The position numbers were made by a program, and so were the translations under genes. DNA of 64,000 nt from Candidatus Peregrinibacteria bacterium (GTDB taxonomy: Bacteria > Patescibacteriota > Gracilibacteria > Peribacterales > Peribacteraceae): assembly GCA_018648865.1 (NCBI GenBank), contig JABGQH010000009.1, forward strand, positions 1-64,000. Direction: 5' to 3'. The notes under the pieces were generated by a model, which did not search any database, was not told the DNA's origin, and saw nothing but the letters and a program-made list of their open reading frames with translations. Position 1 is the stretch's first letter. The number at the start of each line of letters is the position of its first letter. This document shows, one piece after another, positions 1 through 63,702 of the stretch.

Positions 1-992
1 TCCTCTGAAATAAAAGCACTATTAATAGTAACCCACATTGGTGTCCCACCACCTAATGATAAAAGTAGAAACATAGGTAGAGATGCTCCTATATATGCCA
101 ATGCAAGAGTATTTATCATGGATGCCACATGCTCATTCCCAATTGATATACCTGCTGTATATAGTTTTTTAAGGCCATAATTAGGATTTGCTTTTCTGAT
201 TTCGTCTATAGCTGCGACTTGAGACGTAGTTATGTCGTCCAAAATGCCCAGTGCACCAATAATTATTCCAGATAGAAATAACCCCTTTGGATTAACACTT
301 ATAGAAGGGTCTAGTTTTAGGAATATACTTTCTTCTGTTCCTAGTCCAAAAAGATTAACAATATCTACAGTAGCAATAGATAATAATATTGAGCAAATCA
401 GAGTAATAAATGTTGATATAAGCGATATAAATGATCTTTTATTAAATCCATGAGCTACTAAAATAGTGATAGAGGCTATTAGAAATGTCCCGATAATACT
501 AACTAAAAGTGCGTTCCAACCAGACTTAATAAGAGGGAAGATGATATAAATAATAATAGATATTGATATTAAGAGGCCAATGATAGACATAACACCTTTC
601 TTTCTACCAATAAACATAACAAGAGCTAAAAAGGCACAAATTACAAATAGTAATGGATATAGTCTAAATGTTTCTTGAAAAAAATAATCATTACTACCAT
701 CTGATCTATTTATGTTTTGCAGAACAATATTTTGACCTTCGTAAATTTTCAGATCTTCTCTATTGCCAGCTTGAACATTATCAACATTAACTATAGTTCC
801 TGTTTCTGGCCCAGAAACTATTTTAACCTTTGCTTTTTGAATTGGAGTATCGCTACCTATATCTTCTGTAATTACACTCTGTACGTAACCTCGAATAAAT
901 TCAATTTTTGATTCTTGCGCCAAGGCTATTTGTGAATAAAAAAGAGTTATTAATACTGAGGTGCAATAAAGAGATATAAAATGTAATTTCAT
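1..992 (-). CDS. YibE/F family membrane protein (3' end cut by window edge)
   Basis: Minus-strand frame from ATG at 992 stays open to the window edge. Translation begins MKLHFISLYCTSVLITLFYSQIALAQESKIEFIRGYVQSV and has multiple TM helices typical of YibE/F. Confidence 0.8.
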   Translation of the reverse strand, partial: MKLHFISLYCTSVLITLFYSQIALAQESKIEFIRGYVQSVITEDIGSDTPIQKAKVKIVSGPETGTIVNVDNVQAGNREDLKIYEGQNIVLQNINRSDGSNDYFFQETFRLYPLLFVICAFLALVMFIGRKKGVMSIIGLLISISIIIYIIFPLIKSGWNALLVSIIGTFLIASITILVAHGFNKRSFISLISTFITLICSILLSIATVDIVNLFGLGTEESIFLKLDPSISVNPKGLFLSGIIIGALGILDDITTSQVAAIDEIRKANPNYGLKKLYTAGISIGNEHVASMINTLALAYIGASLPMFLLLSLGGGTPMWVTINSAFISE

Positions 993-2942: not shown

Positions 2943-3037
2943 AGATAAATAATGAATATATACCCATACTTTATTCTTTTTATATTCAAAGTCTATACCA
3001 AAGAAATATTAAATATGTTAAAGAAATATTGGTCCAT

Positions 3038-4426
3038 TTACCTCCTCCTTCTACGTTTTGGTGCGCTGCCAGATCTATCATTTCTTTTTGGTGCACCGCT
3101 AGATCTATTTGATGAAGAACTAGAGCTATTTCTTTTTGATGAGAATCCACCTTTTGAGCTGCTTCTCTCTGATGAGAATCCACCTTGAGAGTTATTTCTA
3201 TTAGATGAGAATCCTGATCTAGAGCCACTTCTTCTAGAAGGCCTTCTTCTATTTCTACTGTTTGTACTTTTAGTAAATTCGAATGATTCCTTTGGCAATG
3301 TAGGTATAGAAATCCTTCGTAGTGATGAATTGATCAATCCTTCAATATTCTTAACATCTTTCATTTGGCTTGGCATAGCAAAGGAGATTGCTTTACCAGA
3401 TTTACCGGCACGCCCAGTTCTACCAATCCTGTGAACGTAGTCAGATGGATCGTCTGGTAGATCGTGGTTAATAACTACAGAGATATTTGTAACATCAATT
3501 CCTCTAGCTGCTATATCTGTTGCAACTAGGACTCGATACTTTCCACTTTTAAATCCTGCGAGTGCTTCTCTACGTTGGCTCAATGTCTTATTTGAGTGAA
3601 TCTCTGCAGCAGTGAACCTGTTTGTATTTAACTGCCTTGTTAAGTTCTTTGCTCCATGTTTTGTTCTAGAAAATACAAGTACAGATCCTTCAATTTCCTT
3701 TAGTAAGGATATTAGTAGATCCTTTTTATTCTCTTTGCGAACAATTATAAGCTCTTGCTCTATATCTTTTGCAGCAGTTCCTGCTGGAGCTACTTCTATT
3801 CTAAGTGGTAGTTTCATCTCTTTTTTTGCAATAGTGAAAATCGACTGAGGCATAGTTGCAGAGAACAACAGTGTCTGACGATCTCTTGGTACATGTTGCA
3901 AAATCTTATTAATTTGAGGTTTAAATCCCATGTCTAGCATTCTGTCTGCTTCATCTAAAACTAATACACTAACTTCTTTCAAGCTTACAGTACGTTGTTG
4001 CAAGTGATCATTTAATCTACCAGGTGTTGCAATCAAGATTCGAGGATTGTTCTTTAGCATTCTCTTTTGCAAGTACATTGGGCTACCACCTACAAATACT
4101 GCTGTCTTTATTCCTACAATAGATGCATAAGGCTGTAACGATTCTTGTGCCTGATACGCAAGCTCTCTAGTTGGAACAACTATTAAGCCCCTGCCTTTTC
4201 CAGAGGCTAGGCGCTGGAGCATTGGTAGACCAAACGCCAAGGTTTTACCTGTTCCTGTTTGAGCAATTCCTACGATATCCTTTCCCTCCAATCCTTTTGG
4301 AATTGTTTGGTTTTGAATAGGTGTAGGTTCAGAAATATTGTTGTTATCTAAAACTCTTAGTAGTGCAGGAGTAATTCCGAGCACACTAAAATTGTTTGGG
4401 CCAACTTGCTTAGTCTCTTCATTCAT
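3038..4426 (-). CDS. DEAD/DEAH-box RNA helicase with Ser/Arg/Gly-rich C-terminal tail
   Basis: Motifs AQTGTGKT, PTRELA, DEAD, SAT, HRIGRTGRAG; low-complexity basic tail. Confidence 0.93.
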   Translation of the reverse strand: MNEETKQVGPNNFSVLGITPALLRVLDNNNISEPTPIQNQTIPKGLEGKDIVGIAQTGTGKTLAFGLPMLQRLASGKGRGLIVVPTRELAYQAQESLQPYASIVGIKTAVFVGGSPMYLQKRMLKNNPRILIATPGRLNDHLQQRTVSLKEVSVLVLDEADRMLDMGFKPQINKILQHVPRDRQTLLFSATMPQSIFTIAKKEMKLPLRIEVAPAGTAAKDIEQELIIVRKENKKDLLISLLKEIEGSVLVFSRTKHGAKNLTRQLNTNRFTAAEIHSNKTLSQRREALAGFKSGKYRVLVATDIAARGIDVTNISVVINHDLPDDPSDYVHRIGRTGRAGKSGKAISFAMPSQMKDVKNIEGLINSSLRRISIPTLPKESFEFTKSTNSRNRRRPSRRSGSRSGFSSNRNNSQGGFSSERSSSKGGFSSKRNSSSSSSNRSSGAPKRNDRSGSAPKRRRRR

Positions 4427-4475
4427 TATGTAATAATATTACACTAATTTTTAAGAATATTGCAACTATTTGAGT

Positions 4476-4801
4476 TTATTTCTTGTATTTGCTTTATTAC
4501 ACTCGTATATTCAAATTAAGCAAGTTTCGAGTGCTTAAGTGTACAAAGCTCTTGCTTAAGCCCCTTCGGCCCCCTGCAGTTTAACTGTAGTTGTGTGTGC
4601 CTAACATTCCTCCTCTAGTACGAGGAGTTATACGGGGAGCGAAGCAGTTGCTTGCAACTGTCTCGCAATCTTCACTCCTGAAAGGAATACTTCCGATGAC
4701 GTCGCCGAACTCGCCCATAAGGGCATCGCCGAAATGTGAGTGAAGTGATCTCCTACGAAGGAGACAACAAACGCCCCGCTACTCTTAACGAGAAGTGGGG
4801 C
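4476..4801. repeat. Tandem repeat copy 1 / candidate structured RNA
   Basis: Shares a ~100-nt block, an exact 63-nt block (4619-4681) and a 26-nt block (4738-4763) with copy 2; ends in a hairpin followed by ttatttctt. Confidence 0.65.
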
Positions 4802-5157
4802 TTATTTCTTGTATTTACTTCATTAGACTCGTATATTCAATTTAAGCAAGTTTCGAGTACTTAAGTGTACAAAGCTCTTGCTTAAGCCCCTTTGACCCCC
4901 TGTAACGTACATATACCAAATGTGTATTGCAGTTGAGTGGTCTAACATTTCTACCTCAGGTACGAGGAGTTATACGGGGAGCGAAGCAGTTGCTTGCAAC
5001 TGTCTCGCAATCTTCACTCCTGACAGCAGAAAGCATTACCATGACGCCCGAGATCAACATCCGAGCGCCGTAACTTCAGAGTGAAGTGATCTCCTACGAA
5101 GGAGGCTGCAAACCTACGCTCCGTAACTCTATATGAGTTACGGGGCTGTTTTCTTTA
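4802..5157. repeat. Tandem repeat copy 2 / candidate structured RNA
   Basis: Same block order as copy 1 (63-nt block at 4961-5023, 26-nt block at 5079-5104); ends in hairpin GCTCCGTAACTC-TATAT-GAGTTACGGGGC followed by tgttttcttt. Confidence 0.65.
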
Positions 5158-5205
5158 CATCAAGCGGGAATCTTGTATTATTACCGCCATTTTTGCATTA
5201 AAAAT

Positions 5206-7710
5206 ATGAGTGGTAATTTAGAACAAGCTTTGGCAGAACTAAATCTGAGTCCTGATGTCGATACTTCAGTTTTAGAAAAGTTAGATATGGAATTTAATTT
5301 GCCTGAGAGGGGAATGAGCTCAGCAAGAATTAGTGAATTGCAAAGTGAAACTGCTAATGGAATAAGCGATGTATTACGCTTTGGGGTTTATGACGAAGAA
5401 GAAAGTATTGTAGAAAGCAAGGAAGAAGCAGTAGATAGAGAGGTATCAATAAGATCCCAACTAACTATTGCACTAAGATACTTAGATCAATTATTAGAGA
5501 TAGATTCACAAGTTTGTGGAGTCTCGGATGCTCTTGGTGAAGCTGGTGTAGGAGGAATCGAAAGCACTACTGGTGGTATTAAAATGCCAATGAGAAATAT
5601 AAAAGAAAATGGAGAAAACATAACTGTAGAAGCAAAAAACTCTTGGGGGTCTGATCCAGATTCAAAAGATAGGAGTAAGGATATGCCGATATTAACACGT
5701 GGTGATAAGGTAAATTTCTTTGACTCAAAAGATAGATATATAGGTAGTGGAGAAGTTAAGTTTGCAGAAAGAGGAAATATTCATTTGTCTGCTCATTCTA
5801 GTGTCGTTTTTAGGAAAGGTTGTTACATAAAAAAAGCTTCAAACAAAGGAACATTAATTAGGTATAAGAAAAAAGTAGCAATGTTTTGTAGACAAATGGA
5901 GCATGTTCCAACAGATAAAATGGGCATAGATTACAATTTGGATCTTATAGAAGAACTAAAGGTGAAGAGAGTTACGAGACTGAGGCCTTATACTGGAGTA
6001 TTATATGAAGTAGATGAAGAACAAATACCTGAATTAAATGTTGCAGAAAGCGCATTCTTAGGAAGAGGTGATAATCAATATTTAGGGAGAAATAATCTAA
6101 AATCAGAAGATATACCTAGATCAATCCTTGGTGATCCAGAGCAATGTGCTGCATTTGCCTTAGGCGCTAGTGGGTATCCATGCTTTTTGATACAGGGCCC
6201 CTCTGGTACAGGTAAAACAACTGTTGCAAGTAATATAGCTAAATTAAATCAGTCAAAAGGTAGAAGAACTCTAATAGTATCCCATAGTAATAAGGGGCTA
6301 GACGTATTACTTGGTGCTACCAAAAAAATAGGAGCAGCAGTACATAGAGCTGGTACTCACATAGAATCCTGTAGAAAGGATTTACGAGAAGACTTTATGC
6401 GTAAAGGACTTAAATATCCTGTAAAAAGTGAATTTATAAGTTATGAATTTGATAAAGAGTCATATGACAAAGCATGTAGAGGAGCAGAGGTAGGAAAAAA
6501 GCCATACAGAGAAACATTTACAGATGTTATATTTGACGAGGAGGATTATGACCAAGCTATTTCGGATTTTAAATCAAGAAAAAAAGATATAGTAGATAAG
6601 TTAAAAGAAGAAAGAGGCTTAATAGTTGGTGTAACCCTTACGACATTGCTAACAGATGAGATCATTAAAGAATTGGATTTTGATACCGTAATCGTAGATG
6701 AGGCTTCTAGGGGCTATATATATGAATTACTCCCAGCTTTAGAAAAAGCTGGAAAACAAATTATATTTGTAGGTGACCATGTTCAATTAGGCAATATTCC
6801 TTTAGCTCCTAATGTGGGTAATTTCTTATCTGATGCTAGCCAAAGCGAAGACGTAGGAAATATCGGTAAAACTGAAGTAGAAGATTTTCAAGATGGTCCA
6901 TTTAAATTCTTGGCAGAGAAATCTAGCATGTACCAAGTAATGCTAAAAACCAATCGAAGATCCCTACCTGCAATAGTAGAGATGATTAGCAAAATGGGAT
7001 ACGAAGGAAGGCTAAAAGCAGGAAGAATAGACATGAAAAATCCAGAGAACATTGGTGAATTAATTTGGGTAGATACCTCTAGCAGACCAGATAGCGTAGA
7101 ATCTTCTGCTGGTCTATCTATGATTAGTCATCTAGAGGCTAGGTTGATAGCAAGAAGGCTCTGTAAGGATTTTGAAAAAGGAATAATCAGCAAAGAAAAT
7201 GACAGTTTTGGAATAATCGCTATGTACAGTGCTCAAGTTAGAACAGTCGAAGATAGAGTTAACGAAGCAAAATTTGATGATCTAAGAGACAGAGAGGAAT
7301 TTATAGAATTACTTGCAAACAAAATTGCTACTGTAGATTCATTCCAAGGTGATGAAGAGGATAGAATTTATATTTCTATGACTAGGAGTAATGAAAACGA
7401 GAACGTAGGACACTTAAATGAAAAGAGTCGAATAATTGTGGCTTTCTCTCGCTCACGTGACTCGGTTGTAATTTTTGGAGACAAAGAAACATTGATTGAT
7501 AATAATCCAGATGCAGAAAGTGCTACATGCTTTGAGCAGGCCTATAAATCCTGTGAAGAACATGGAACGGTTATCTCTGATTGGCCTACATTGCCTGTTG
7601 ATGTGATGCCAGAAGAAAAGAAAAGCAAAACCCACAATGCTATAAGGCAAAGAAGAAGAAGGAGAATGAAAGGAGATAAGAAAAAAATTGAAAGAAATGC
7701 ACAAGTATAG
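5206..7710 (+). CDS. Superfamily 1 (UPF1/Dna2-like, AAA_11/AAA_12) helicase
   Basis: IQGPSGTGKTTVASNI (Walker A), VIVDEAS, FVGDHVQLGNI, TVDSFQGDEEDRIYISMTRSN. ORF track starts at 5173; MSGNLEQALAEL at 5206 is the likelier start. Confidence 0.88.
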   Translation: MSGNLEQALAELNLSPDVDTSVLEKLDMEFNLPERGMSSARISELQSETANGISDVLRFGVYDEEESIVESKEEAVDREVSIRSQLTIALRYLDQLLEIDSQVCGVSDALGEAGVGGIESTTGGIKMPMRNIKENGENITVEAKNSWGSDPDSKDRSKDMPILTRGDKVNFFDSKDRYIGSGEVKFAERGNIHLSAHSSVVFRKGCYIKKASNKGTLIRYKKKVAMFCRQMEHVPTDKMGIDYNLDLIEELKVKRVTRLRPYTGVLYEVDEEQIPELNVAESAFLGRGDNQYLGRNNLKSEDIPRSILGDPEQCAAFALGASGYPCFLIQGPSGTGKTTVASNIAKLNQSKGRRTLIVSHSNKGLDVLLGATKKIGAAVHRAGTHIESCRKDLREDFMRKGLKYPVKSEFISYEFDKESYDKACRGAEVGKKPYRETFTDVIFDEEDYDQAISDFKSRKKDIVDKLKEERGLIVGVTLTTLLTDEIIKELDFDTVIVDEASRGYIYELLPALEKAGKQIIFVGDHVQLGNIPLAPNVGNFLSDASQSEDVGNIGKTEVEDFQDGPFKFLAEKSSMYQVMLKTNRRSLPAIVEMISKMGYEGRLKAGRIDMKNPENIGELIWVDTSSRPDSVESSAGLSMISHLEARLIARRLCKDFEKGIISKENDSFGIIAMYSAQVRTVEDRVNEAKFDDLRDREEFIELLANKIATVDSFQGDEEDRIYISMTRSNENENVGHLNEKSRIIVAFSRSRDSVVIFGDKETLIDNNPDAESATCFEQAYKSCEEHGTVISDWPTLPVDVMPEEKKSKTHNAIRQRRRRRMKGDKKKIERNAQV

Positions 7711-26397: not shown

Positions 26398-27660
26398 TTA
26401 GATAGGTAGTGATTCAACATCTAAAGATGGCAATTCTCTTTCTGCTTTAACGCCTATATCCATAGGTAGGCTAGTTATTGGGTCAACTTCCTGAGAAGTA
26501 ATTATTAGTCTTCGTAATGTTGTTCCAATTGGAGTACATGTCATTAAAGTCCCAATTCGTTTATTAATTGGTTGGTCTAGCACATTTACATTTGTTGGCT
26601 TAACCTCTTTTTTCTCTTGAACAATGTACCTGTGTTTATCTCCACCATAATAAATCCAATATTCATCACCTGGTTCTAGTTGATGCAAGCCAGCAAAAAC
26701 TGATTTATATGCCCCTGGTGCCCATGGGTAATACGAACTGTGCCCTGTTATGAAAAAGTTACCAGCTTGCCCAGGTCTAGCTGTTCCGGGGTAATGAACA
26801 ACTCCGAGCTGCAATGCATCTTGAATGTCTTCCTCTAGCTCATCCCATTCTTCATTTAGCAGCGATTGATAAGAAGGCGTAATTAGAGGGACATTTAAAT
26901 GCAACTTTGGAATAATAATTCTATTTGTTGGTGGCCCAACTTGTGGCAAGAAGCTGAGCATATTCCCATTGCTGTCACCAGATACAGCAAGAGAAGGACT
27001 CCTGAGTAGTTTCTGCTTCATTGTGTCGTCAACACCAGTCAGCAAAGATGATTCCTGAATCTTTTGAATTGGATTTAGATTAGATTTGGTTATCTTCCAG
27101 AAACTTTGGAAATTTAAAGTTATAAACAAAAGCAGGAATAATCCTGCAAAAGTTCCACCGAATCTAACAGTATCAATTAGGAATAATGTGAGTCTGTTAT
27201 ATTGTTTCATTTCATTTTTTTTCTTTTGCACTACCCAAACTGGTTGAGTTAAAAAGTTCCAAATTGGTTTTTTTATAGACTTTGAATTCTTGGCAACATT
27301 TATACATTCGCTCTTGCATGTTTTTAAACAAGAGCTGTATTGATTTGTGCCTTCTGAAAATACTGAATTTATAGTGTTAAATATTTTCTTACGTGCTGAT
27401 ATAAAAATATGGTGATCCTTGGATACAGAAAATGATTTCTCCAAAGAAGGTGAAATCTCATCTTCAAATGGAACATTATGTCCATGTTGTTTTCTGGAGA
27501 CTCTAATACTCTGATCTTCTAAATTTGAAATTGGAGTTGAGTCTTCTTCTGTAACTGTCCATGAATTATTCTGATTAATATCATTATCAGCATCTGGAAG
27601 ACGTATATTTCCATCTTCATCATATTCAGCCTCGTGATCGTGGTTATGCGCAGAAATCAA
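26398..27660 (-). CDS. Sortase family protein with long N-terminal extension
   Basis: Sortase core IIIPKLHLNVPLI, GNFFITGHSSYYPWAPGAYKSVFAGLHQLEPGDEYWIYY, TLMTCTPIGTTLRRLIIT; one internal TM helix. ORF track uses TTG at 27660. Confidence 0.85.
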   Translation of the reverse strand: MISAHNHDHEAEYDEDGNIRLPDADNDINQNNSWTVTEEDSTPISNLEDQSIRVSRKQHGHNVPFEDEISPSLEKSFSVSKDHHIFISARKKIFNTINSVFSEGTNQYSSCLKTCKSECINVAKNSKSIKKPIWNFLTQPVWVVQKKKNEMKQYNRLTLFLIDTVRFGGTFAGLFLLLFITLNFQSFWKITKSNLNPIQKIQESSLLTGVDDTMKQKLLRSPSLAVSGDSNGNMLSFLPQVGPPTNRIIIPKLHLNVPLITPSYQSLLNEEWDELEEDIQDALQLGVVHYPGTARPGQAGNFFITGHSSYYPWAPGAYKSVFAGLHQLEPGDEYWIYYGGDKHRYIVQEKKEVKPTNVNVLDQPINKRIGTLMTCTPIGTTLRRLIITSQEVDPITSLPMDIGVKAERELPSLDVESLPI

Positions 27661-40198: not shown

Positions 40199-41623
40199 AT
40201 GAAGAAATTATCAACTTTATTATTTATATCTGGTTTAACAACTGGAGTATTAGTTACGTCTGCCATTGGACAGGGTGGTTTGGGATCCCTAATTTTTCCA
40301 GACGTACCTGTTGGCTCTTATTATGATGCATCTATTGGCGAAATGGCATCACTTGGTATTATTACAGGATTCGCAGATGGTACATTTAAGCCAAATGATC
40401 CACTAAGCAGAGGCCAAGCAGCTGTTTTAATGAAAAGGCTTAGGGATGAAATAAAAGGCATAACTTCGTCATCTAGTAGCAGATCATCAGTTTCTTCTAG
40501 TTCATCTTCAAGCTCTTCTTCTAGTAGTTCTACTTCTAGTTCTTCTTCTAGTAGTTCAATTCCATCATCTGGGCTGGTTAGATTTACAGCTTCTCAGTAC
40601 AGAGTAAATGAGGATGCAGGCACTGTTACAGTCACTCTTGTGAGGGCAGCTGGCAATAGAGGAGTTGTTACAGTTGATTACACACTTGTTGCAGACTCTG
40701 CTACCGAAGACGAGGATTACGAAAAGCAAGAAGGCACAGTAAGATTTGATTCTGGTGTTACAAGTGCACGATTTGATTTAGCAATTTTAGACGATCAAGA
40801 CCAAGAAGGAGATGAGACATTTAAAATTACTCTAGATAATATTACTGGCGGAGCAGGTAGAACTACTCCAGACGAAGCAACAATATTAATTAATGATGAT
40901 GAAACAGCTAGCAGTAGCTCAAGTTCTTCTGTTGCAGATGGTCCAGAAGAGGGAACATTTAAGTTCTCTGCTTTAGACTTTGCAGCTTCAGAGGAAATTG
41001 ACACAGCAACAATCCGAGTGGTAAGGACAGGTGGAGATACAGGATCTGTTTCTGTTAATTATGGGATGACAAATGGAACTGCAAGATCATCCAATTATAA
41101 TAGTACAAGTGGAGTACTTAATTTCTCAGGAGGAGAAACAGAAAAAACGTTTACTATTACAATTCTGGATAATTCAGATATGGGTGGTAACAAAACAGTA
41201 AACTTATCACTATCTAATCCAACAGGAGGTGCAGAGATTGGCGATTCAACCGCTCTACTAACAATCTATGATGATGAAAATTCATCATTTGGCTCAGGAT
41301 CACTTAAATTGAGTCATACAGAATTCGAGGTTTTAGAAAGTGATGGGGAGGCAATTATTACTATAAAGAGACTAGGGGGAGCAATGGGGGAAGTTTCTGT
41401 TAAGTTTAAAACCATCTCCAATACAGCAACAGCTGGGTCAGATTATGAGAATGTAGATGAAATTATCGTATTTAAAGATGGCGAAGCGTCTAAAACAGTA
41501 ATCATACCTGTATTAAAGGATTTGGTATCAGACGGAGGAGAATCAGTAAATCTAAGACTTCAGGATCCAACAGGTGGTGCGACTATTATTACACCTAGTA
41601 CGGCAATCCTTTATATATATTAG
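40199..41623 (+). CDS. SLH + polyserine linker + Calx-beta repeat surface protein
   Basis: FPDVPVGSYYDASIGEMASLGIITGFADGTFKPNDPLSRGQAAVLM; Ser run; three Calx-beta-like units. Confidence 0.88.
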   Translation: MKKLSTLLFISGLTTGVLVTSAIGQGGLGSLIFPDVPVGSYYDASIGEMASLGIITGFADGTFKPNDPLSRGQAAVLMKRLRDEIKGITSSSSSRSSVSSSSSSSSSSSSSTSSSSSSSSIPSSGLVRFTASQYRVNEDAGTVTVTLVRAAGNRGVVTVDYTLVADSATEDEDYEKQEGTVRFDSGVTSARFDLAILDDQDQEGDETFKITLDNITGGAGRTTPDEATILINDDETASSSSSSSVADGPEEGTFKFSALDFAASEEIDTATIRVVRTGGDTGSVSVNYGMTNGTARSSNYNSTSGVLNFSGGETEKTFTITILDNSDMGGNKTVNLSLSNPTGGAEIGDSTALLTIYDDENSSFGSGSLKLSHTEFEVLESDGEAIITIKRLGGAMGEVSVKFKTISNTATAGSDYENVDEIIVFKDGEASKTVIIPVLKDLVSDGGESVNLRLQDPTGGATIITPSTAILYIY

Positions 41624-53545: not shown

Positions 53546-54352
53546 TTAAAGCCTATGCAGACCAATTCTTTTAGCTGTAACAATTAATCTGTCTTTTGTT
53601 GTTCCTATAGGGAAGCACGTCATCAACTTAAGTATCTTCTCATCCTTTTGTTGCTTTAAAATTTCAGTTTCAGAAACTGGAATTACGTAGGATTCTTGAA
53701 CAATGTATGTGATTCTAACCCCATCATCTATTAGATATATTGCATCTCCTTCTTTTAATGATGGAAGCGATCTAAAAATATTTCCATATATACTTTCTGC
53801 TGCACGTTCGTCTGGAGGGCTGCTATGACCTGCAATAATTATTGAACCCATTTCACCAGGTAAAACAGAATGAGGATATGCAACAGCTCCTTTTAGGAGT
53901 CCTATTTGCATTTGCTCTTCTAACATACCCCATTTTCTAGACTCCCAATAAGTGATAGACGGTAGCAAAACTGGAACACGTATGTTCAAAGAGGGGATTT
54001 GCAATGTAAAGGATCTTTGTAGCCCCCATTTTTCAAGTTCATTTTCAGTTTTAGCATTGTCTTCTTCTGAATTTATCTCTCTTGTTTCTACAGTTATATT
54101 AACTGGTGCAGACTCATGTAATTCATTTTTATCGATTTCATCTTCTATATTAATAAGTGATGCTTCTAAACTCTTTGTCTTAACATTGGAATATTCCAAG
54201 TAGCTTAAATTTCTGTTCCAAACATTTTCTTTTGATTCATATGTATTGGAATATGCAATATTGGCGATTGCTAATGTCCAAAGCAAAGAGGAAACAACAA
54301 CAGAGATCCCCGCAGCCGTATAAGCAAATTTCCAGTTTTGTTTTTGTGTCAT
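53546..54352 (-). CDS. Sortase family protein
   Basis: TLQIPSLNIRVPVLLPS, GSIIIAGHSSPPDERAAESIYGNIFRSLPSLKEGDAIYLI, LMTCFPIGTTKDRLIVTAKRI. Confidence 0.85.
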   Translation of the reverse strand: MTQKQNWKFAYTAAGISVVVSSLLWTLAIANIAYSNTYESKENVWNRNLSYLEYSNVKTKSLEASLINIEDEIDKNELHESAPVNITVETREINSEEDNAKTENELEKWGLQRSFTLQIPSLNIRVPVLLPSITYWESRKWGMLEEQMQIGLLKGAVAYPHSVLPGEMGSIIIAGHSSPPDERAAESIYGNIFRSLPSLKEGDAIYLIDDGVRITYIVQESYVIPVSETEILKQQKDEKILKLMTCFPIGTTKDRLIVTAKRIGLHRL

Positions 54353-56986: not shown

Positions 56987-58666
56987 ATGAAAAAGATATG
57001 CACAAAGTGTTCGGCAGGATTTGAGATCACAGAAGAAGATATTGATATGCTGAGTGATTTAAGTCCTGTGATTGGAGGGAAGAAATACGAAATTCCACCA
57101 CCAACGCTTTGTCCTAGGTGTAGATCCAAAAGAAGGCTATCTCATGTTAACCAATTAAATTTATATGAGAGGAAATGTAATCTAACTGGAGCAAGCATTA
57201 TTTCAAATATTAGACCTGAGTTGCCTTATAAGGTATATCGCCAAGAAGATTGGTACAGCGATAAGTGGGATCCATTAGATTATGGAATGAATTTTGATTT
57301 TAATAGACCATTTTTTGAACAATGGAATGAGCTTGTATTAAATGTTCCACTCCCCAATCTATTTACAGGATATGAATTTGATGAAAATTGTGAATATACA
57401 AACCACGCAGGTAAAAATCAGAATTGTTATTTGGTTTTTGATTCAGATGAAGACAGAGACTGCTATTACAGCTACAGCATAAATCAGTGTGTAAATTGTA
57501 TGGACTGCTATCGAACTAGGAAGTCTGAATTATGTTATGAGTGTGTTGATTGTGTTAAATGTTATGAGTCTTCATTCTTACAAGATTGTAATAATTGTAG
57601 CTCTAGCATGTTTTTAAAAAACTGTACTGGATGTAAAAACTGCTTGATGTGCTCTAACATGAACAATAAAGAATATTTTGTAGAAAATAAAAAAGTTTCA
57701 AAAGAAGAGTTTGAAAACTTTAGATCATTATTGGGTTCATATGCTTCTTTAAAGAATGCAAAAGAAAGGTTTATGAAATTAAAATTAGAGTATCCACAAA
57801 AATATATACATGGGATTCAAAACGAAGATGTAGTAGGGGATTACCTAGTTAATTGTAAAAATGCATATATGTGCTTCGATAGCGAGGACTTATGGGATTG
57901 CAGGTATGTTTGCCAAGGTTTTATGCCTCTAAAAAATTGTATGGATATAGATGAATGTGGAGAGGCAGAAAAGTTGTATGAGTGCACGGTTTGTGGTTAC
58001 CAAATTAATTCCTGTTGCTTCTGTGACCATACATTAGGAATGATGACTGACCTTTTATATTGTTCCCATTGCCCACATACTACAGATTCATTTGGTTGCA
58101 GAGGTGTTCAAAGAAAGGAGTACTGCATTCTAAATAAGCAATATACAAAAGAAGAATATGAAGAATTGGTACCTAGGATTATTAATCACATGATTGAAAC
58201 AGGTGAATGGGGCGAGAACTTTCCATCCACAACATCTAAATACGCATATAACGAGACGATGGCTCAAGATCATTATCCACTAAATAAAGAGCAGGCAGTT
58301 AAAGAAGGTTTAAATTGGCTAGATGATGAAAAGAAGATTGATCAATACATGGGTCCAGTAAATGTATTACCAGATAATGTGAAAGATGCCCCCGATGATG
58401 TTTGTAAAAAAATCTACATTTGTGAGGAATCAGGTGAGCCATATAAAATTATTCCTCAGGAACTTTCGTTTTATAAAGAATTAAATTTACCATTACCTAG
58501 AAAAGGTTTCTTTAAACGTAATAAGGATAGAATGAAGTTAAGAAGCCCAAGAAAATTATATGGCAGGAAATGCGAAGAGTGCGGAATTGAATTCATGACT
58601 TCTTATGCATTAGATAGAGAGGAAAAAATCTTTTGCGAATCCTGTTACCAGAAAGCTCTAATATGA
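56987..58666 (+). CDS. Cys-rich zinc-ribbon paralog 1
   Basis: N-terminal CTKC...CPRC, central Cys ladder, YCILNKQYTKEEYEELVPRI, YNETMAQDHYPL, C-terminal CEEC...CESC. Confidence 0.85.
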   Translation: MKKICTKCSAGFEITEEDIDMLSDLSPVIGGKKYEIPPPTLCPRCRSKRRLSHVNQLNLYERKCNLTGASIISNIRPELPYKVYRQEDWYSDKWDPLDYGMNFDFNRPFFEQWNELVLNVPLPNLFTGYEFDENCEYTNHAGKNQNCYLVFDSDEDRDCYYSYSINQCVNCMDCYRTRKSELCYECVDCVKCYESSFLQDCNNCSSSMFLKNCTGCKNCLMCSNMNNKEYFVENKKVSKEEFENFRSLLGSYASLKNAKERFMKLKLEYPQKYIHGIQNEDVVGDYLVNCKNAYMCFDSEDLWDCRYVCQGFMPLKNCMDIDECGEAEKLYECTVCGYQINSCCFCDHTLGMMTDLLYCSHCPHTTDSFGCRGVQRKEYCILNKQYTKEEYEELVPRIINHMIETGEWGENFPSTTSKYAYNETMAQDHYPLNKEQAVKEGLNWLDDEKKIDQYMGPVNVLPDNVKDAPDDVCKKIYICEESGEPYKIIPQELSFYKELNLPLPRKGFFKRNKDRMKLRSPRKLYGRKCEECGIEFMTSYALDREEKIFCESCYQKALI

Positions 58667-60315
58667 AAAACTCTTGCAGCGAATGCTCGGCAAAATTTGA
58701 AGTAACAGATAGTGATTTAGAATTCTTTGGTAAATTTAAATACCCCATATCTACACCTACTCTGTGTCCGGCCTGTCGAGTACAAAGGAGGATGTCTTGG
58801 AGGAACGATAGAACTTTCTACCATCGAAAATCCTCCTTATCAAAAAAACAGATGGTATCTATTTATCCAGAAAATACCCCTTGGCCTGTATATCTACAGA
58901 GTGAGTGGTATAGCGATAAATGGAATCCTTTGGATTATGGAATTGAATTTGATTTTAGCGTTCCATTCTTTACTCAGTTTAAAGAGCTAATGATGACAGT
59001 ACCTAGACTGGGTATGGATTTAATTAATTGTGAGAACAGCGAATATTGTAATTACTGTGGTGATGATAAAAACTGTTATTTAGATATTGCAGGTGAGGCC
59101 AATGAAGATTGTTACTTCTGTTTATTTACTAAATATTCAAAAAATTGCTTAGACTGCACATTCGCTTATCATTCAACTCTGTGTCATGAATGCATACAGG
59201 TTTACAACTCATATGCATGTAGGAATTCTATGTACTTAGATAACTGCAGTGATTGCGCATTTAGTTTCGATCTAAAAGGATGCAAGAACTGCCTACTTTC
59301 TATTAACCTTCGTAATAAAGAATATTATATTTTGAACGAACCTCATACAAAGGAGGAATATGAAAAGAAACTTTTAGAATTAAATTTGAGTTCTAATGAA
59401 GCACTAAAAAGTGTTCATGATATTTGGAAAAAAATGAGAATTGAAAATGGAATCTATAGAGACATGTACACCTTGAATTGTGAAGACTGCACAGGAAATA
59501 ACGTTAAGACATCAAAAAATTGTCATGGATGTTACAACACAACAGACTCAGAAGATTGTAAATATTTATATGATGTCCTAGATGCAAAGGACTGTCAGGA
59601 TTTAAATTACTCACTTTATAAACCAGAGGTAGCATATGAACTCTGTTCAACGTTAAATATGACTTATAGCGCCTTCTGCTACGCTTCTCATTACAGTAAT
59701 AATTGTTTCTATTGTGATAAGACAAATCATAGTAGCAACTGTTTTGGTTGTATTGGATTAGACCATATGGAGTATTGCATTCTGAACAAGCAATATACAA
59801 AGGAAGAATACGAAGAATTGCTGCCAAGAATTATCGCATACATGGAAAAAACTAAAGAATGGGGACAGTTCTTTCCAGTTACACTTTCACCATATGGATA
59901 TAACGAAACTGTTGCCCATGAATACATGCCACTAACTCAGAAAGAGGTAGAGAAGAATGGTTGGGTTTGGACGTTGCAAGAAGAAAAGGAAAGTTACATG
60001 GGTCCAGAAGTACAAATACCAGATACAATTTCGGATGTAAGCGATGATATTTGTAATGAGCTTATAACCTGCGATAAAAGTGGTAAGCCTTTTAAGATAA
60101 TTCCACAAGAGCTTAAATTTTATCGCGAGCAGGGGATTCCAATACCTAGGAGGTCCCCAATGCAAAGGCATACAGATAGAAATGACCTAAGAAATCCACG
60201 CAAGCTCTGGGACAGAAAATGTGATAAGTGCTCAAATGATATTCAAACAAGTTACAGTCCAGATAGGCCAGAGAAGGTTTTTTGTGAGGAATGTTATCTA
60301 AAAGAGGTATACTAG
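58663..60315 (+). CDS. Cys-rich zinc-ribbon paralog 2
   Basis: Same architecture; ATGA overlap with paralog 1 (MKNSCSECSAKFEV at 58663; ORF track 58633). Confidence 0.85.
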   Translation: MKNSCSECSAKFEVTDSDLEFFGKFKYPISTPTLCPACRVQRRMSWRNDRTFYHRKSSLSKKQMVSIYPENTPWPVYLQSEWYSDKWNPLDYGIEFDFSVPFFTQFKELMMTVPRLGMDLINCENSEYCNYCGDDKNCYLDIAGEANEDCYFCLFTKYSKNCLDCTFAYHSTLCHECIQVYNSYACRNSMYLDNCSDCAFSFDLKGCKNCLLSINLRNKEYYILNEPHTKEEYEKKLLELNLSSNEALKSVHDIWKKMRIENGIYRDMYTLNCEDCTGNNVKTSKNCHGCYNTTDSEDCKYLYDVLDAKDCQDLNYSLYKPEVAYELCSTLNMTYSAFCYASHYSNNCFYCDKTNHSSNCFGCIGLDHMEYCILNKQYTKEEYEELLPRIIAYMEKTKEWGQFFPVTLSPYGYNETVAHEYMPLTQKEVEKNGWVWTLQEEKESYMGPEVQIPDTISDVSDDICNELITCDKSGKPFKIIPQELKFYREQGIPIPRRSPMQRHTDRNDLRNPRKLWDRKCDKCSNDIQTSYSPDRPEKVFCEECYLKEVY

Positions 60316-60321
60316 GCACCA

Positions 60322-62004
60322 ATGCAGAAAAAATGCTGTAAATGTCCGGGATCGTTTGAAATAACTGACGAGGATTTAGTATTTTACGACAAAGTTTCAC
60401 CAATAATTAATAAAAAGAAACACAGAATACCAACTCCTACTCTATGCACACCCTGTAGAGAGCAGAGGCGTTTAGCAATCCCGAATGTTAGAAACTTCTA
60501 TTCTAGAGAATGTAATCTTTGTCAGAAGATGATGGTATCAGCATATGCATCCGATCAACTATTTACAGTCTATTGCCAAGAATGTTGGTGGGGTGATAAG
60601 TGGGATGAATTAACTTACGGTGTTGATGTTGATTTCTCACGTCCATTTATCGAGCAGATGCAAGAATTACAACTAAAAGTGCCACGGCTTACCTTGATGA
60701 ATAAGGCTGCAGAGAACAGTGAGTTCTGTAACTACGCAGGATTCAACAAGAATTGTTATCTAGCAATTGCTGGTTCGTGGTACAACGAAGATTGTTTATA
60801 TGGAACGTGTTTCGATCACTCAAAAAACTCTGTGGATTGCTCATTTCTTTCTTACGGAGAATTGTGTTACGAATGCATCTATGGCACTAAATTATACAAT
60901 TGTGTTTACTGTGTTGATTCCTCTGATTCCTCAGATTGTCTATTTTCATTCAATTTAAGAGGTTGTAGAAATTGCATTCTAAGCAGTAATATACGTAACA
61001 AACAGTATTACATACGTAATAAGCAATGCACTAAGCAAGAATTTGATGAAATCAGGAGTATGATTTCTAGGTACGAAATCTTCCAGAAATATCTAACAGA
61101 GTTTCACAAGTGGAGAAAAACACTCTTGCGTCCAGCTAACTACAATATTAACTGTGAAGATTGTATCGGCGACTATCTGCGGAATTGCAAAAATGTAGTA
61201 AACGGCTTTATTGGAAATGGGGTAGAGGATGCAAAAAATGTTTTCATGGTTGAGTATTCAAAGGATTTTATGGACTGTTGTTTTGCAGGTTACGATAATG
61301 CTCAACTTTTCTATGAATGCATAGCCGCTGGTATAGGAGGGCAGCGTAATCAATTCTGTTTTCAGAATTGGTCATGCAATGACATACTTTATTGCGATAC
61401 ACCACAGTCATCATCAGACTGTTTCGGTTGCATTTGTATTCGCAATAAACAATTTTGTATTCTAAATAAGCAATATTCAAAGAACGAATACCAAGAGTTA
61501 GTACCAAGAATCATAGATCTTATGAAAAAACATGGAGAGTGGGGAGAGTTCTTTCCATCTAGCTATAGTCCATTCGCTTATAACGAGACATTTGCTCAAG
61601 ACTACTATCCTCTAGCCAAAAAAGAAGCACTAATGAATAATCTAAAATGGAGAGAGGACACTAATGAAATATTAAAAGTAGATCGAACTATACCTTCTAG
61701 TAATCTACCTGATTCTATCCATGACATTCCAGATGATATTCTTAATTGGGCTGTAATATGTGCAGAAACTGGTAAGCCGTACCGTATTGTAAAACAAGAA
61801 CTTTACTATTATCGTTCACAGAACCTACCAGTTCCTCGATTACACTACGATGCTCGCAATAAGCATCGCATCCAATTACACAATTTGAATAAGATACACA
61901 AAAAGCAATGCGACAAGTGCAACAAAGAAATGCATACAGTTTATTCAACTGATTGTTCTGAAACAGTTTTTTGTGAGGAATGTTATCTAAAAGAGGTATA
62001 CTAG
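60322..62004 (+). CDS. Cys-rich zinc-ribbon paralog 3
   Basis: Same architecture; ends CEECYLKEVY. Confidence 0.85.
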   Translation: MQKKCCKCPGSFEITDEDLVFYDKVSPIINKKKHRIPTPTLCTPCREQRRLAIPNVRNFYSRECNLCQKMMVSAYASDQLFTVYCQECWWGDKWDELTYGVDVDFSRPFIEQMQELQLKVPRLTLMNKAAENSEFCNYAGFNKNCYLAIAGSWYNEDCLYGTCFDHSKNSVDCSFLSYGELCYECIYGTKLYNCVYCVDSSDSSDCLFSFNLRGCRNCILSSNIRNKQYYIRNKQCTKQEFDEIRSMISRYEIFQKYLTEFHKWRKTLLRPANYNINCEDCIGDYLRNCKNVVNGFIGNGVEDAKNVFMVEYSKDFMDCCFAGYDNAQLFYECIAAGIGGQRNQFCFQNWSCNDILYCDTPQSSSDCFGCICIRNKQFCILNKQYSKNEYQELVPRIIDLMKKHGEWGEFFPSSYSPFAYNETFAQDYYPLAKKEALMNNLKWREDTNEILKVDRTIPSSNLPDSIHDIPDDILNWAVICAETGKPYRIVKQELYYYRSQNLPVPRLHYDARNKHRIQLHNLNKIHKKQCDKCNKEMHTVYSTDCSETVFCEECYLKEVY

Positions 62005-62010
62005 GCACCA

Positions 62011-63702
62011 ATGCAGAAAAAATGTCCTAAGTGCTCGGCGTCATTTAATGTAACTGACGAGGATATTTTGCTTTTAGATAAATTATCACCAGTGATTAAT
62101 TCCAAAAAGCATAGTCTGCCAGCTCCTACATTATGTTTTAGCTGCAGATTACAAAGGAGGCTAGCGTTCTATAATTCTAGATCGATTTATCCTAGGAAAT
62201 GCGATCTAACAGGAAAAAACATTGTATCTATTTATTCACCGGATAAGCCATACAAAGTTTACGAGAGAAGAGAATGGTATGGGGATAACTGGGATCCATT
62301 TGAATATGGCAGAGATTTTGATTTTAATAGACCTTTCTTTGATCAATTCAAAGAATTACTAGATTCGGTTCCACATCTTTCTTTAACAGTACTAGGAGAG
62401 ACTGTTAATAGTGAATTCACTAATGACAATTTGATAGTAAAAAATTGTTATCTAATATTCGACGGAGAGAGAGCAGAGGATTGTATGTATGGTCATACAT
62501 TTGTTGGTATCACTTCATGTTTAGATTTTGCAGCAGCGGTAGATTGTGAACTCTGCTATGAAACGATCCATTGCAATAATTGTTATAACTGCAAATACAG
62601 TAGATATTCTACAAATTGTAGTGATAGTTGGTTTATTAGGGACTGCATAGGATGTAAGAACTGTTTTGGATGTGCTAATTTGAGGCAAAAACAATATTGC
62701 ATATTTAATGAACAAAAAACAAAAGAGGAATACGAGAAATACTTAGAACAATTCGATTCAACCTCGTATAAAACTGTTCAGGATATGATTAATAAAACAA
62801 ATGAGTTCTTTCTGAAATATCCTGTAAAAGAATGTAGAGGAGAACAGAATGTTGATGTCACAGGGAATAATCTAAATCAATCAAAGGATTCAAAAGACTG
62901 CTTTGACTGCAACAAAGTACAGGACTGCCATTACTGCACAAATTGCTTGGTAGGAGCAAAGGACTGCAGTGATATACATATATGGGGAGACAGCATGGAG
63001 CTCTGTTATGAAAGCTGCGTAATTGGTGTAAAGACTCAAAACTTATTGGGCTGTTATTATGTGTCACAAGGTGCAGACAACATACTCTATTCTATGTATT
63101 GCAGCAGAAGTGTAAAAAACCTATTTGGTTGCATAGGGTTACGGCATAAGAGCAATTGTATTTTCAACAAACAATATTCAGCAGAAGAGTATGAAGATCT
63201 AGCTGAAAGAATCGTTGAGCATATGAAGAAGACTGGAGAATGGGGGGAGTTCTTTCCATCTTCTATATCTGGCTTTGGTTATAACGAAACAATGGCTCAG
63301 ACATTCTTTCCCTTAGAAAAAGACGATGCAAAGAAGCTTGGCTATTCATGGAGTGAATACCAATCTCCTGTAGAGGCAGATCGTACGATTGATGCTTCAA
63401 AGTTGCCAGATAGTACAAATGACATCCCAGACGATGTTTTGAACTGGGCCATCGTATGCACAGATACAGGAAAGCCTTTTAAAATAATTAGGAAGGAACT
63501 TGAGTTTTATAGAGATCATAAATTGCCGATTCCTCGTAAGCACCCAGACCAAAGGCATTACGATAGATTTGCTATTAAAAATCCATATCACCTTTGGGAT
63601 AGATCATGCGATAAATGTTCTAAAGAAATTAAAACAACATACGCACCAGAAAGGCCAGAAACAATTTTCTGTGAAGAATGCTATCTAAAAGAGGTATACT
63701 AA
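62011..63702 (+). CDS. Cys-rich zinc-ribbon paralog 4
   Basis: Same architecture; ends CEECYLKEVY. Confidence 0.85.
   Translation: MQKKCPKCSASFNVTDEDILLLDKLSPVINSKKHSLPAPTLCFSCRLQRRLAFYNSRSIYPRKCDLTGKNIVSIYSPDKPYKVYERREWYGDNWDPFEYGRDFDFNRPFFDQFKELLDSVPHLSLTVLGETVNSEFTNDNLIVKNCYLIFDGERAEDCMYGHTFVGITSCLDFAAAVDCELCYETIHCNNCYNCKYSRYSTNCSDSWFIRDCIGCKNCFGCANLRQKQYCIFNEQKTKEEYEKYLEQFDSTSYKTVQDMINKTNEFFLKYPVKECRGEQNVDVTGNNLNQSKDSKDCFDCNKVQDCHYCTNCLVGAKDCSDIHIWGDSMELCYESCVIGVKTQNLLGCYYVSQGADNILYSMYCSRSVKNLFGCIGLRHKSNCIFNKQYSAEEYEDLAERIVEHMKKTGEWGEFFPSSISGFGYNETMAQTFFPLEKDDAKKLGYSWSEYQSPVEADRTIDASKLPDSTNDIPDDVLNWAIVCTDTGKPFKIIRKELEFYRDHKLPIPRKHPDQRHYDRFAIKNPYHLWDRSCDKCSKEIKTTYAPERPETIFCEECYLKEVY

What the first reader, a model, noticed from the sequence alone, without database searches (positions are those of the whole stretch)
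4476..5157. Tandemly duplicated ~330-nt element with covarying terminal hairpin: candidate structured non-coding RNA
Two adjacent copies share block order but not uniform identity: a conserved 5' block with stem TTAAGCAAG/CTTGCTTAA; an exact 63-nt block with nested AGGAGT/ACTCCT, GCGA/TCGC and CAGTTG-cttg-CAACTG; a variable middle; then gagtgaagtgatCTCCTacgaAGGAG, whose GAGTGAAG can alternatively pair with CTTCACTC of the 63-nt block. The end hairpins differ in sequence but keep a 12-position stem and 5-nt loop: GCCCCGCTACTC-TTAAC-GAGAAGTGGGGC versus GCTCCGTAACTC-TATAT-GAGTTACGGGGC, with compensatory changes (G-U to G-C, C-G to U-G, U-A to A-U, A/A to A-U). Both are followed by T-rich tracts. 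The region is GC-rich relative to its surroundings. The alternative pairing suggests a switch or terminator.
Basis: partly seen in the sequence, partly recalled or inferred. Interest (0 to 1): 0.72.

Follow-up and report, generated by a model that had tools for sequence, protein, structure and literature searches.

The report
Structured RNA paired with UPF1-like helicase
A tiny-genome bacterium carries two back-to-back copies of a previously undescribed ~300-letter folded RNA, which in relatives sits once, always just in front of the same UPF1-like RNA/DNA-unwinding enzyme gene, suggesting the RNA and the enzyme work together.

Summary
Window 4476-5157 holds two tandem copies (86% identical where aligned) of a ~290-305-nt element, each ending in an intrinsic-terminator hairpin. 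It is not a dispersed repeat: there are only these two copies in the 1.13-Mb genome. It matches no Rfam family, and RNase P RNA and tmRNA lie elsewhere. The decisive step was synteny. A covariance model built from the two window copies found full-length homologues (E 3e-16, 1.7e-5, 3.1e-5, unfiltered searches of 28-79 kb) directly upstream of the orthologue of the window's next gene, a UPF1-like SF1 helicase, in three other genomes. A fifth genome has a contig-truncated copy. All five genomes with the full-length helicase among 353 in the class therefore have the RNA. Structure predicted from the window alone survives with compensatory changes at 38 of 70 pairs (3-9 when slid). A sequence-only model mostly fails. 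So this is a new structured RNA family forming a patchy two-component cassette with a UPF1-like helicase in Peregrinibacteria, duplicated here. The proposed switch is not supported: GAGTGAAG/CTTCACTC is a regular helix and no antiterminator is conserved. I favour a trans-acting RNA partner of the helicase (about 0.5). An autoregulatory leader is the main rival. No function or expression is shown.

The parts
4483..4511 (+). promoter-like boxes of RNA copy 1: TTGTAT-17-TATATT (weak)
   Evidence: sequence; 8/12 matches, reached by 265 of 500 shuffles of this AT-rich stretch, so position rather than score is the argument
4516..4801 (+). RNA copy 1 from P1 stem to end of terminator hairpin
   Evidence: fold z -5.3
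4516..4559 (+). P1 hairpin, copy 1 (TTAAGCAAG / CTTGCTTAA)
   Evidence: base pairs covary in relatives
4560..4637 (+). P2 (GCCCC 4560-4564 / GGGG 4634-4637) enclosing P2b (GGC 4568-4570 / GCC 4599-4601), P3 (CTGCAG 4574-4579 / CTGTAG 4585-4590) and P4 (CCTC 4612-4615 / GAGG 4622-4625)
   Evidence: for P2-P4; P2b recognised from the comparison with relatives and covarying
4639..4666 (+). P5 hairpin, copy 1 (GCGA-GCAGTTG-cttg-CAACTGT-TCGC)
4670..4745 (+). P6 (CTTCACTC 4670-4677 / GAGTGAAG 4738-4745) around the variable middle
4750..4763 (+). P8 hairpin CTCCTacgaAGGAG
4773..4812 (+). terminator hairpin and T-rich tract, copy 1
4809..4837 (+). promoter-like boxes of RNA copy 2: TTGTAT-17-TATATT (weak)
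   Evidence: sequence; (203 of 500 shuffles reach the score)
4842..5146 (+). RNA copy 2 from P1 stem to end of terminator hairpin
   Evidence: fold z -5.2
5118..5157 (+). terminator hairpin (12 pairs, 5-nt loop) and T-rich tract, copy 2
5154..5181 (+). promoter-like TTTACA-16-TATTAT between the RNA terminator and the helicase gene
   Evidence: 10/12; 15 of 500 shuffles reach it; a similar TTTACT-16-TATGAT at the same place in G012, not recognisable in G082/G084
5206..7710 (+). UPF1-like SF1 helicase gene (834 aa) that accompanies the RNA in relatives
   Evidence: Pfam AAA_11/AAA_12; Upf1/NAM7 closest solved chains; linkage

Best explanation
The element is a stand-alone structured non-coding RNA gene, present here as a tandem duplicate. 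It belongs to a previously undescribed RNA family that travels with a UPF1-like SF1 helicase as a two-component cassette. SHOWN: the fold is conserved by compensatory change across three genera of one family, and the RNA lies directly upstream of and on the same strand as the helicase gene in every genome with the full-length helicase that could be checked. INFERRED: each copy is transcribed from its own promoter, folds into a P1-P2(P2b/P3/P4)-P5-P6-P8 architecture and stops at its own terminator. The helicase, which keeps its SF1 motifs and has a basic C-terminal tail, binds this RNA as a dedicated partner (scaffold, specificity factor or inhibitor). The patchy distribution and changing gene neighbourhoods suggest an accessory module, possibly defence. 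Confidence that the family exists as described and is helicase-linked is about 0.95; the number given is for the trans-acting partner mechanism.
For: Homologue directly upstream of the helicase orthologue in G012 (E 3e-16, full model length), G082 (E 1.7e-5) and G084 (E 3.1e-5); the RNA in contig-edge-truncated form in G083 (blastn 77.7-81.2% to G082/G084 over about 207 nt). The helicase profile finds full-length orthologues in only 5 of 353 class genomes: own, G012, G082, G083, G084. A sequence-only model from the same two copies scores 12.2 bits (G012), 4.7 bits (G084) and has no same-strand hit at the RNA in G082, against 49.9, 17.5 and 18.2 with structure. Window-derived structure: 38/70 pairs with compensatory change and 95.8% of cells paired, against 3-9 and 37-50% when slid. 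Adding G012 raises G082/G084 to 30-32 bits. The DEAD-box gene on the other side has orthologues in 25 other genomes, and no full RNA was found beside the 18 of these that were searched, so the linkage is to the UPF1-like gene. A terminator ends each RNA; promoter-like boxes lie between terminator and helicase in two lineages. The window duplicates the whole unit including upstream boxes and terminator.
Against: No expression or binding data. Lying immediately upstream of one gene, with a terminator before it, is also what a regulatory leader looks like. Promoter scores in the AT-rich window are no better than shuffles for the RNA itself. Whether the RNA also occurs without the helicase is unknown, because whole-genome model searches were insensitive: they missed G012, G082 and G084 (against 38, 56).
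Confidence: 0.5

Rival explanations
1. Cis-regulatory leader: the RNA is the 5' part of the helicase transcript and controls read-through of the terminator in front of the gene (attenuator, or autoregulation by the helicase, or an orphan riboswitch-like sensor); in the window it occurs as two leader-terminator units in series.
For: Position 40-60 nt before the start codon with a strong intrinsic terminator, same strand, in all lineages seen. Tandem complete riboswitch-like units are known (review PMC9481103, listed, read only as abstract).
Against: No segment that could compete with the terminator 5' arm is conserved: duplex z-scores are near zero in W1, G012, G082 and G083, and the hits in W2 and G084 lie at different places. 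Promoter-like boxes between terminator and helicase in window and G012. Repeated upstream boxes in copy 2 would bypass copy 1.
Confidence: 0.3
2. Type III toxin-antitoxin-like arrangement: the RNA is an inhibitor of a toxic helicase, with the terminator setting the ratio of RNA to protein; duplication raises RNA dose.
For: Gene order RNA - terminator - protein is that of type III toxin-antitoxin loci (own knowledge); an example with an RNA antitoxin and a non-nuclease toxin is avcID (PMC10511110, abstract). Patchy distribution.
Against: The RNA is not an array of short repeats and the protein is a helicase, not an endoribonuclease or deaminase. No toxicity data.
Confidence: 0.12
3. An independent small RNA (not acting through the helicase) that merely hitchhikes in the same mobile segment.
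For: Only four complete loci in three genera are known; linkage could be by descent.
Against: Linkage persists while the RNA sequence has diverged to about 63-69% in optimised local alignments between genera and neighbouring genes differ.
Confidence: 0.07
4. REP-type dispersed repeat or chance folding.
For: ggagcgaagc-like strings are common in small-genome bacteria (impression, not tested).
Against: Two copies only in the genome, none in phages by blastn, covarying homologues at the same gene.
Confidence: 0.01

Closest known systems
Orphan structured RNA families / riboswitch candidates located upstream of one gene (Rfam cis-reg type)
   Same: Conserved multi-helix RNA ending in an intrinsic terminator just before a gene of one family.
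   Different: No Rfam 15 match even at relaxed thresholds; no conserved antiterminator; whole unit duplicated with its upstream boxes; gene is a UPF1-like helicase.
Type III toxin-antitoxin systems (ToxIN, CptIN, avcID)
   Same: RNA gene, terminator, then protein gene on the same strand.
   Different: No short tandem antitoxin repeats; protein is an SF1 helicase.
Mokosh anti-phage systems (MkoA/MkoC)
   Same: Helicase part is the best PADLOC match (MkoA, 211.5 bits, residues 315-781).
   Different: The match covers only the helicase part of MkoA; no other Pfam domain in the protein, no MkoB-like neighbour recognised; a structured RNA instead.
UPF1 / IGHMBP2 / SEN1-type SF1 helicases
   Same: AAA_11/AAA_12 core, closest solved chains are yeast NAM7/Upf1 and human UPF1, IGHMBP2-family model matched.
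   Different: Below NCBIfam's IGHMBP2 cut-off (107.9 vs 348.9 bits); own ~310-residue N-terminal part without Pfam match; dedicated RNA gene.
tmRNA, bacterial RNase P RNA
   Same: Size class.
   Different: Both are found elsewhere in the genome; no resemblance.

Membership tests
Any Rfam 15 family | covariance-model match | tested here: not met
   no relevant match at E<=5 in window 3000-7000 nor at E<=1 in three homologous loci
Riboswitch / attenuator | mutually exclusive terminator and antiterminator conserved | tested here: not met
Riboswitch / attenuator | located directly upstream of the controlled gene, same strand | tested here: met
Riboswitch / attenuator | same transcript as downstream gene; ligand binding | not testable with these tools
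   needs RNA-seq and binding assays; promoter-like boxes between the two in window and G012 only
Type III toxin-antitoxin | array of short tandem RNA repeats | tested here: not met
   one ~300-nt RNA, single copy in G012, G082 and G084 loci
Type III toxin-antitoxin | endoribonuclease (or deaminase) toxin | tested here: not met
   Pfam finds helicase domains only
Type III toxin-antitoxin | protein toxic alone, RNA neutralises | not testable with these tools
   experiment needed
Mokosh | kinase or phospholipase-D domain fused to, or beside, the helicase | tested here: not met
   no such domain in the protein; only the helicase region of MkoA matches; definition of Mokosh from own knowledge
UPF1-like SF1 helicase (the protein) | AAA_11/AAA_12 with Walker A, DEA, GDHxQLGN, TNRRS, VDSFQG, SR motifs | tested here: met
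REP-type dispersed repeat | many copies scattered in the genome | tested here: not met

The most novel reading that the evidence does not exclude
A dedicated ~300-nt RNA forms a ribonucleoprotein with a bacterial UPF1-like helicase, as cofactor, specificity factor or inhibitor, and the pair moves as a mobile (possibly anti-phage) module: an RNA-partnered UPF1-like helicase of a kind not described before.
Probability: 0.35. Interest if true: 0.85.

Novelty: new variant of a known kind. Interest (0 to 1): 0.62.

Why it matters
Bacterial UPF1-like helicases appear in several anti-phage systems, but I know of none with its own conserved RNA gene. A one-RNA, one-protein cassette is small enough to test directly in vitro. 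It would add a new RNA family from a lineage where few lineage-specific RNAs have been described, and the naturally duplicated form gives two variants to compare.

Tried and rejected
Archaeal RNase P and SRP RNA: tried when I misread the genome as archaeal; it is Peregrinibacteria-like. Bacterial RNase P RNA and tmRNA: found elsewhere. blastn of the element against 59 relatives, phages, plasmids: nothing convincing. Exact structural pattern in viral and genome contigs: none. Whole-genome R1 searches of family and class: only the own copies, later shown to be false negatives. C-rich motif TAAGCCCCTTYGNCCCCC: hits in G014, G245 and three viral contigs are not confirmed by R1 or, for four of the five, by R3 (L071 was not rescanned). 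Short ORFs in the variable middle (ATGACG..., 15 and 10 codons): rejected because the shared GACGCCG lies without ATG in G012. Linkage to the DEAD-box gene: rejected. Helicase relatives in viral contigs: none. AlphaFold model of the helicase: pLDDT 37 with a two-row alignment, not used. Literature: no report of this RNA or of a bacterial UPF1-like helicase with an RNA gene found.

Full report
OBSERVATION. Window 4476-5157 lies between a DEAD-box helicase gene (3038-4426, minus strand) and a UPF1-like SF1 helicase gene (ATG at 5206, plus strand). It holds two tandem copies of one element, 86% identical where aligned, with an exact 64-nt central block, a length-variable hairpin, a diverged middle and diverged terminal hairpins. 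Both fold much better than dinucleotide shuffles (z -5.3, -5.2). There is no other copy in the 1.13-Mb genome and no relevant Rfam match at E<=5. The genome has its own RNase P RNA and tmRNA elsewhere.

THE KEY RESULT: SYNTENY. blastn against relatives and filtered model searches of whole genomes found nothing. The downstream helicase has a 47%-identical relative in G012, identified as Candidatus Peregrinibacteria CG10_big_fil_rev_8_21_14_0_10_55_24 by its contig. Searching that locus with the two-copy covariance model R1, filters off, gave a full-length match at L025:645-922, E 3e-16, ending about 50 nt before the helicase ATG. A helicase profile over 353 genomes of the class found full-length orthologues only in the own genome, G012 and three genomes of one further genus: G082, G083, G084. 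In G082 and G084 the same model found the RNA directly upstream, same strand (E 1.7e-5 and 3.1e-5). G083's contig begins inside the RNA and its remaining 205 nt match the G082/G084 RNA at 77.7-81.2% (blastn). Three shorter, C-terminal-only helicase matches (G283, G224, G040) have no RNA.

STRUCTURE IS WHAT IS CONSERVED. A sequence-only model from the same two copies gives 12.2 bits for G012, 4.7 for G084 and no same-strand match at the RNA of G082; with structure the scores are 49.9, 17.5 and 18.2. Projecting the window-derived structure on the five sequences, 95.8% of cells pair and 38 of 70 pairs show a change on both sides; sliding the 3' partners by 1-4 columns gives 37-50% and 3-9. The alignment was fitted to the structure, so these counts lean towards it; the bit-score comparison is the fairer control. 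Adding G012 to the model raised G084 and G082 to 31.8 and 30.0 bits (E about 1e-9 and 5e-9). A helix-by-helix hand comparison supports P1, P2 (GCCCC/GGGG, nearly invariant), P2b (second pair GC, AU, UA, GU), P3 (variable length), P4, P5 (loop CUUG in most), P6 and P8; it was assembled by eye. Terminator columns in that hand table are not reliably aligned across genera, and the G012 terminator 3' arm was mistyped there (it is not found in the sequence), so the terminator block of that table should be ignored.

GAGTGAAG/CTTCACTC is helix P6, present in the centroid fold of both copies and replaced by CACUUCUG/CAGAAGUG in G082/G084. No upstream segment conserved across sequences competes with the terminator. 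So a switch is not supported, though not excluded.

TRANSCRIPTION SIGNALS. Boxes TTGTAT-17-TATATT precede both window copies, and TTGACA-16-TA(A/C)TTT precede the G082/G084 RNAs. In the AT-rich window such a score is ordinary (265 and 203 of 500 shuffles); in G082 and G084 it is rarer (37 and 10 of 500). Between terminator and helicase, TTTACA-16-TATTAT (window, 15/500) and TTTACT-16-TATGAT (G012, 34/500) stand at the same place; nothing comparable in G082/G084. This favours separate transcription but does not prove it.

THE PROTEIN. AAA_11/AAA_12; nearest solved chains yeast NAM7/Upf1 and human UPF1; IGHMBP2 model below cut-off; best PADLOC match MkoA, helicase part only. SF1 motifs are kept in all five apart from small departures in G082 (GDHxQLGN reads FDHxQLGN, TNRRS reads TDRRS), and the C-terminal tail is rich in Arg/Lys. 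About 310 N-terminal residues have no Pfam match. The structure prediction failed (pLDDT 37).

LINKAGE. The DEAD-box neighbour has strong matches in 26 of 30 genomes examined (own included), and G012's lies on another contig from the RNA; R1 found no full RNA beside the 18 that were searched. Neighbours of the RNA-helicase pair differ: a dCMP-deaminase-like gene in G012, a membrane glycosyltransferase-like gene in G084 and a serine-tRNA-ligase-like gene upstream in G082 (names from reading the translations). The pair is therefore the shared unit, and it is patchy.

MECHANISM. I favour a free RNA that partners the helicase. The rivals are an autoregulatory leader and an RNA antitoxin-like inhibitor. 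Nothing here separates them decisively.

Noticed in passing
window 56987-63702: Four tandem paralogous genes of about 560 aa each (ORFs 56987, 58633, 60322, 62011) encoding cysteine-rich, zinc-ribbon-like proteins; probably a local gene-family expansion.
   Followed up: no
L073 (IMGVR_UViG_3300001533_001073) about 380-560, minus strand: A motif hit lies beside AAC-rich sequence (on the other strand) that resembles a diversity-generating retroelement variable or template repeat, with a GGGGGCGAAGCGGAGCGAAACCCCC hairpin between them; not matched by the RNA models.
   Followed up: partly
window 26398-27660 and 53546-54352: Two sortase-like genes, with several serine-rich-linker surface proteins elsewhere in the window (e.g. 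40199-41623).
   Followed up: no
L083 about 4233-4257 (minus strand) and L084 about 5720-5742: The G082/G084/G083 RNAs carry an extra hairpin (TTCCCCGACACGGATCGGGGAA type) between P6 and P8 that the window and G012 RNAs lack.
   Followed up: partly
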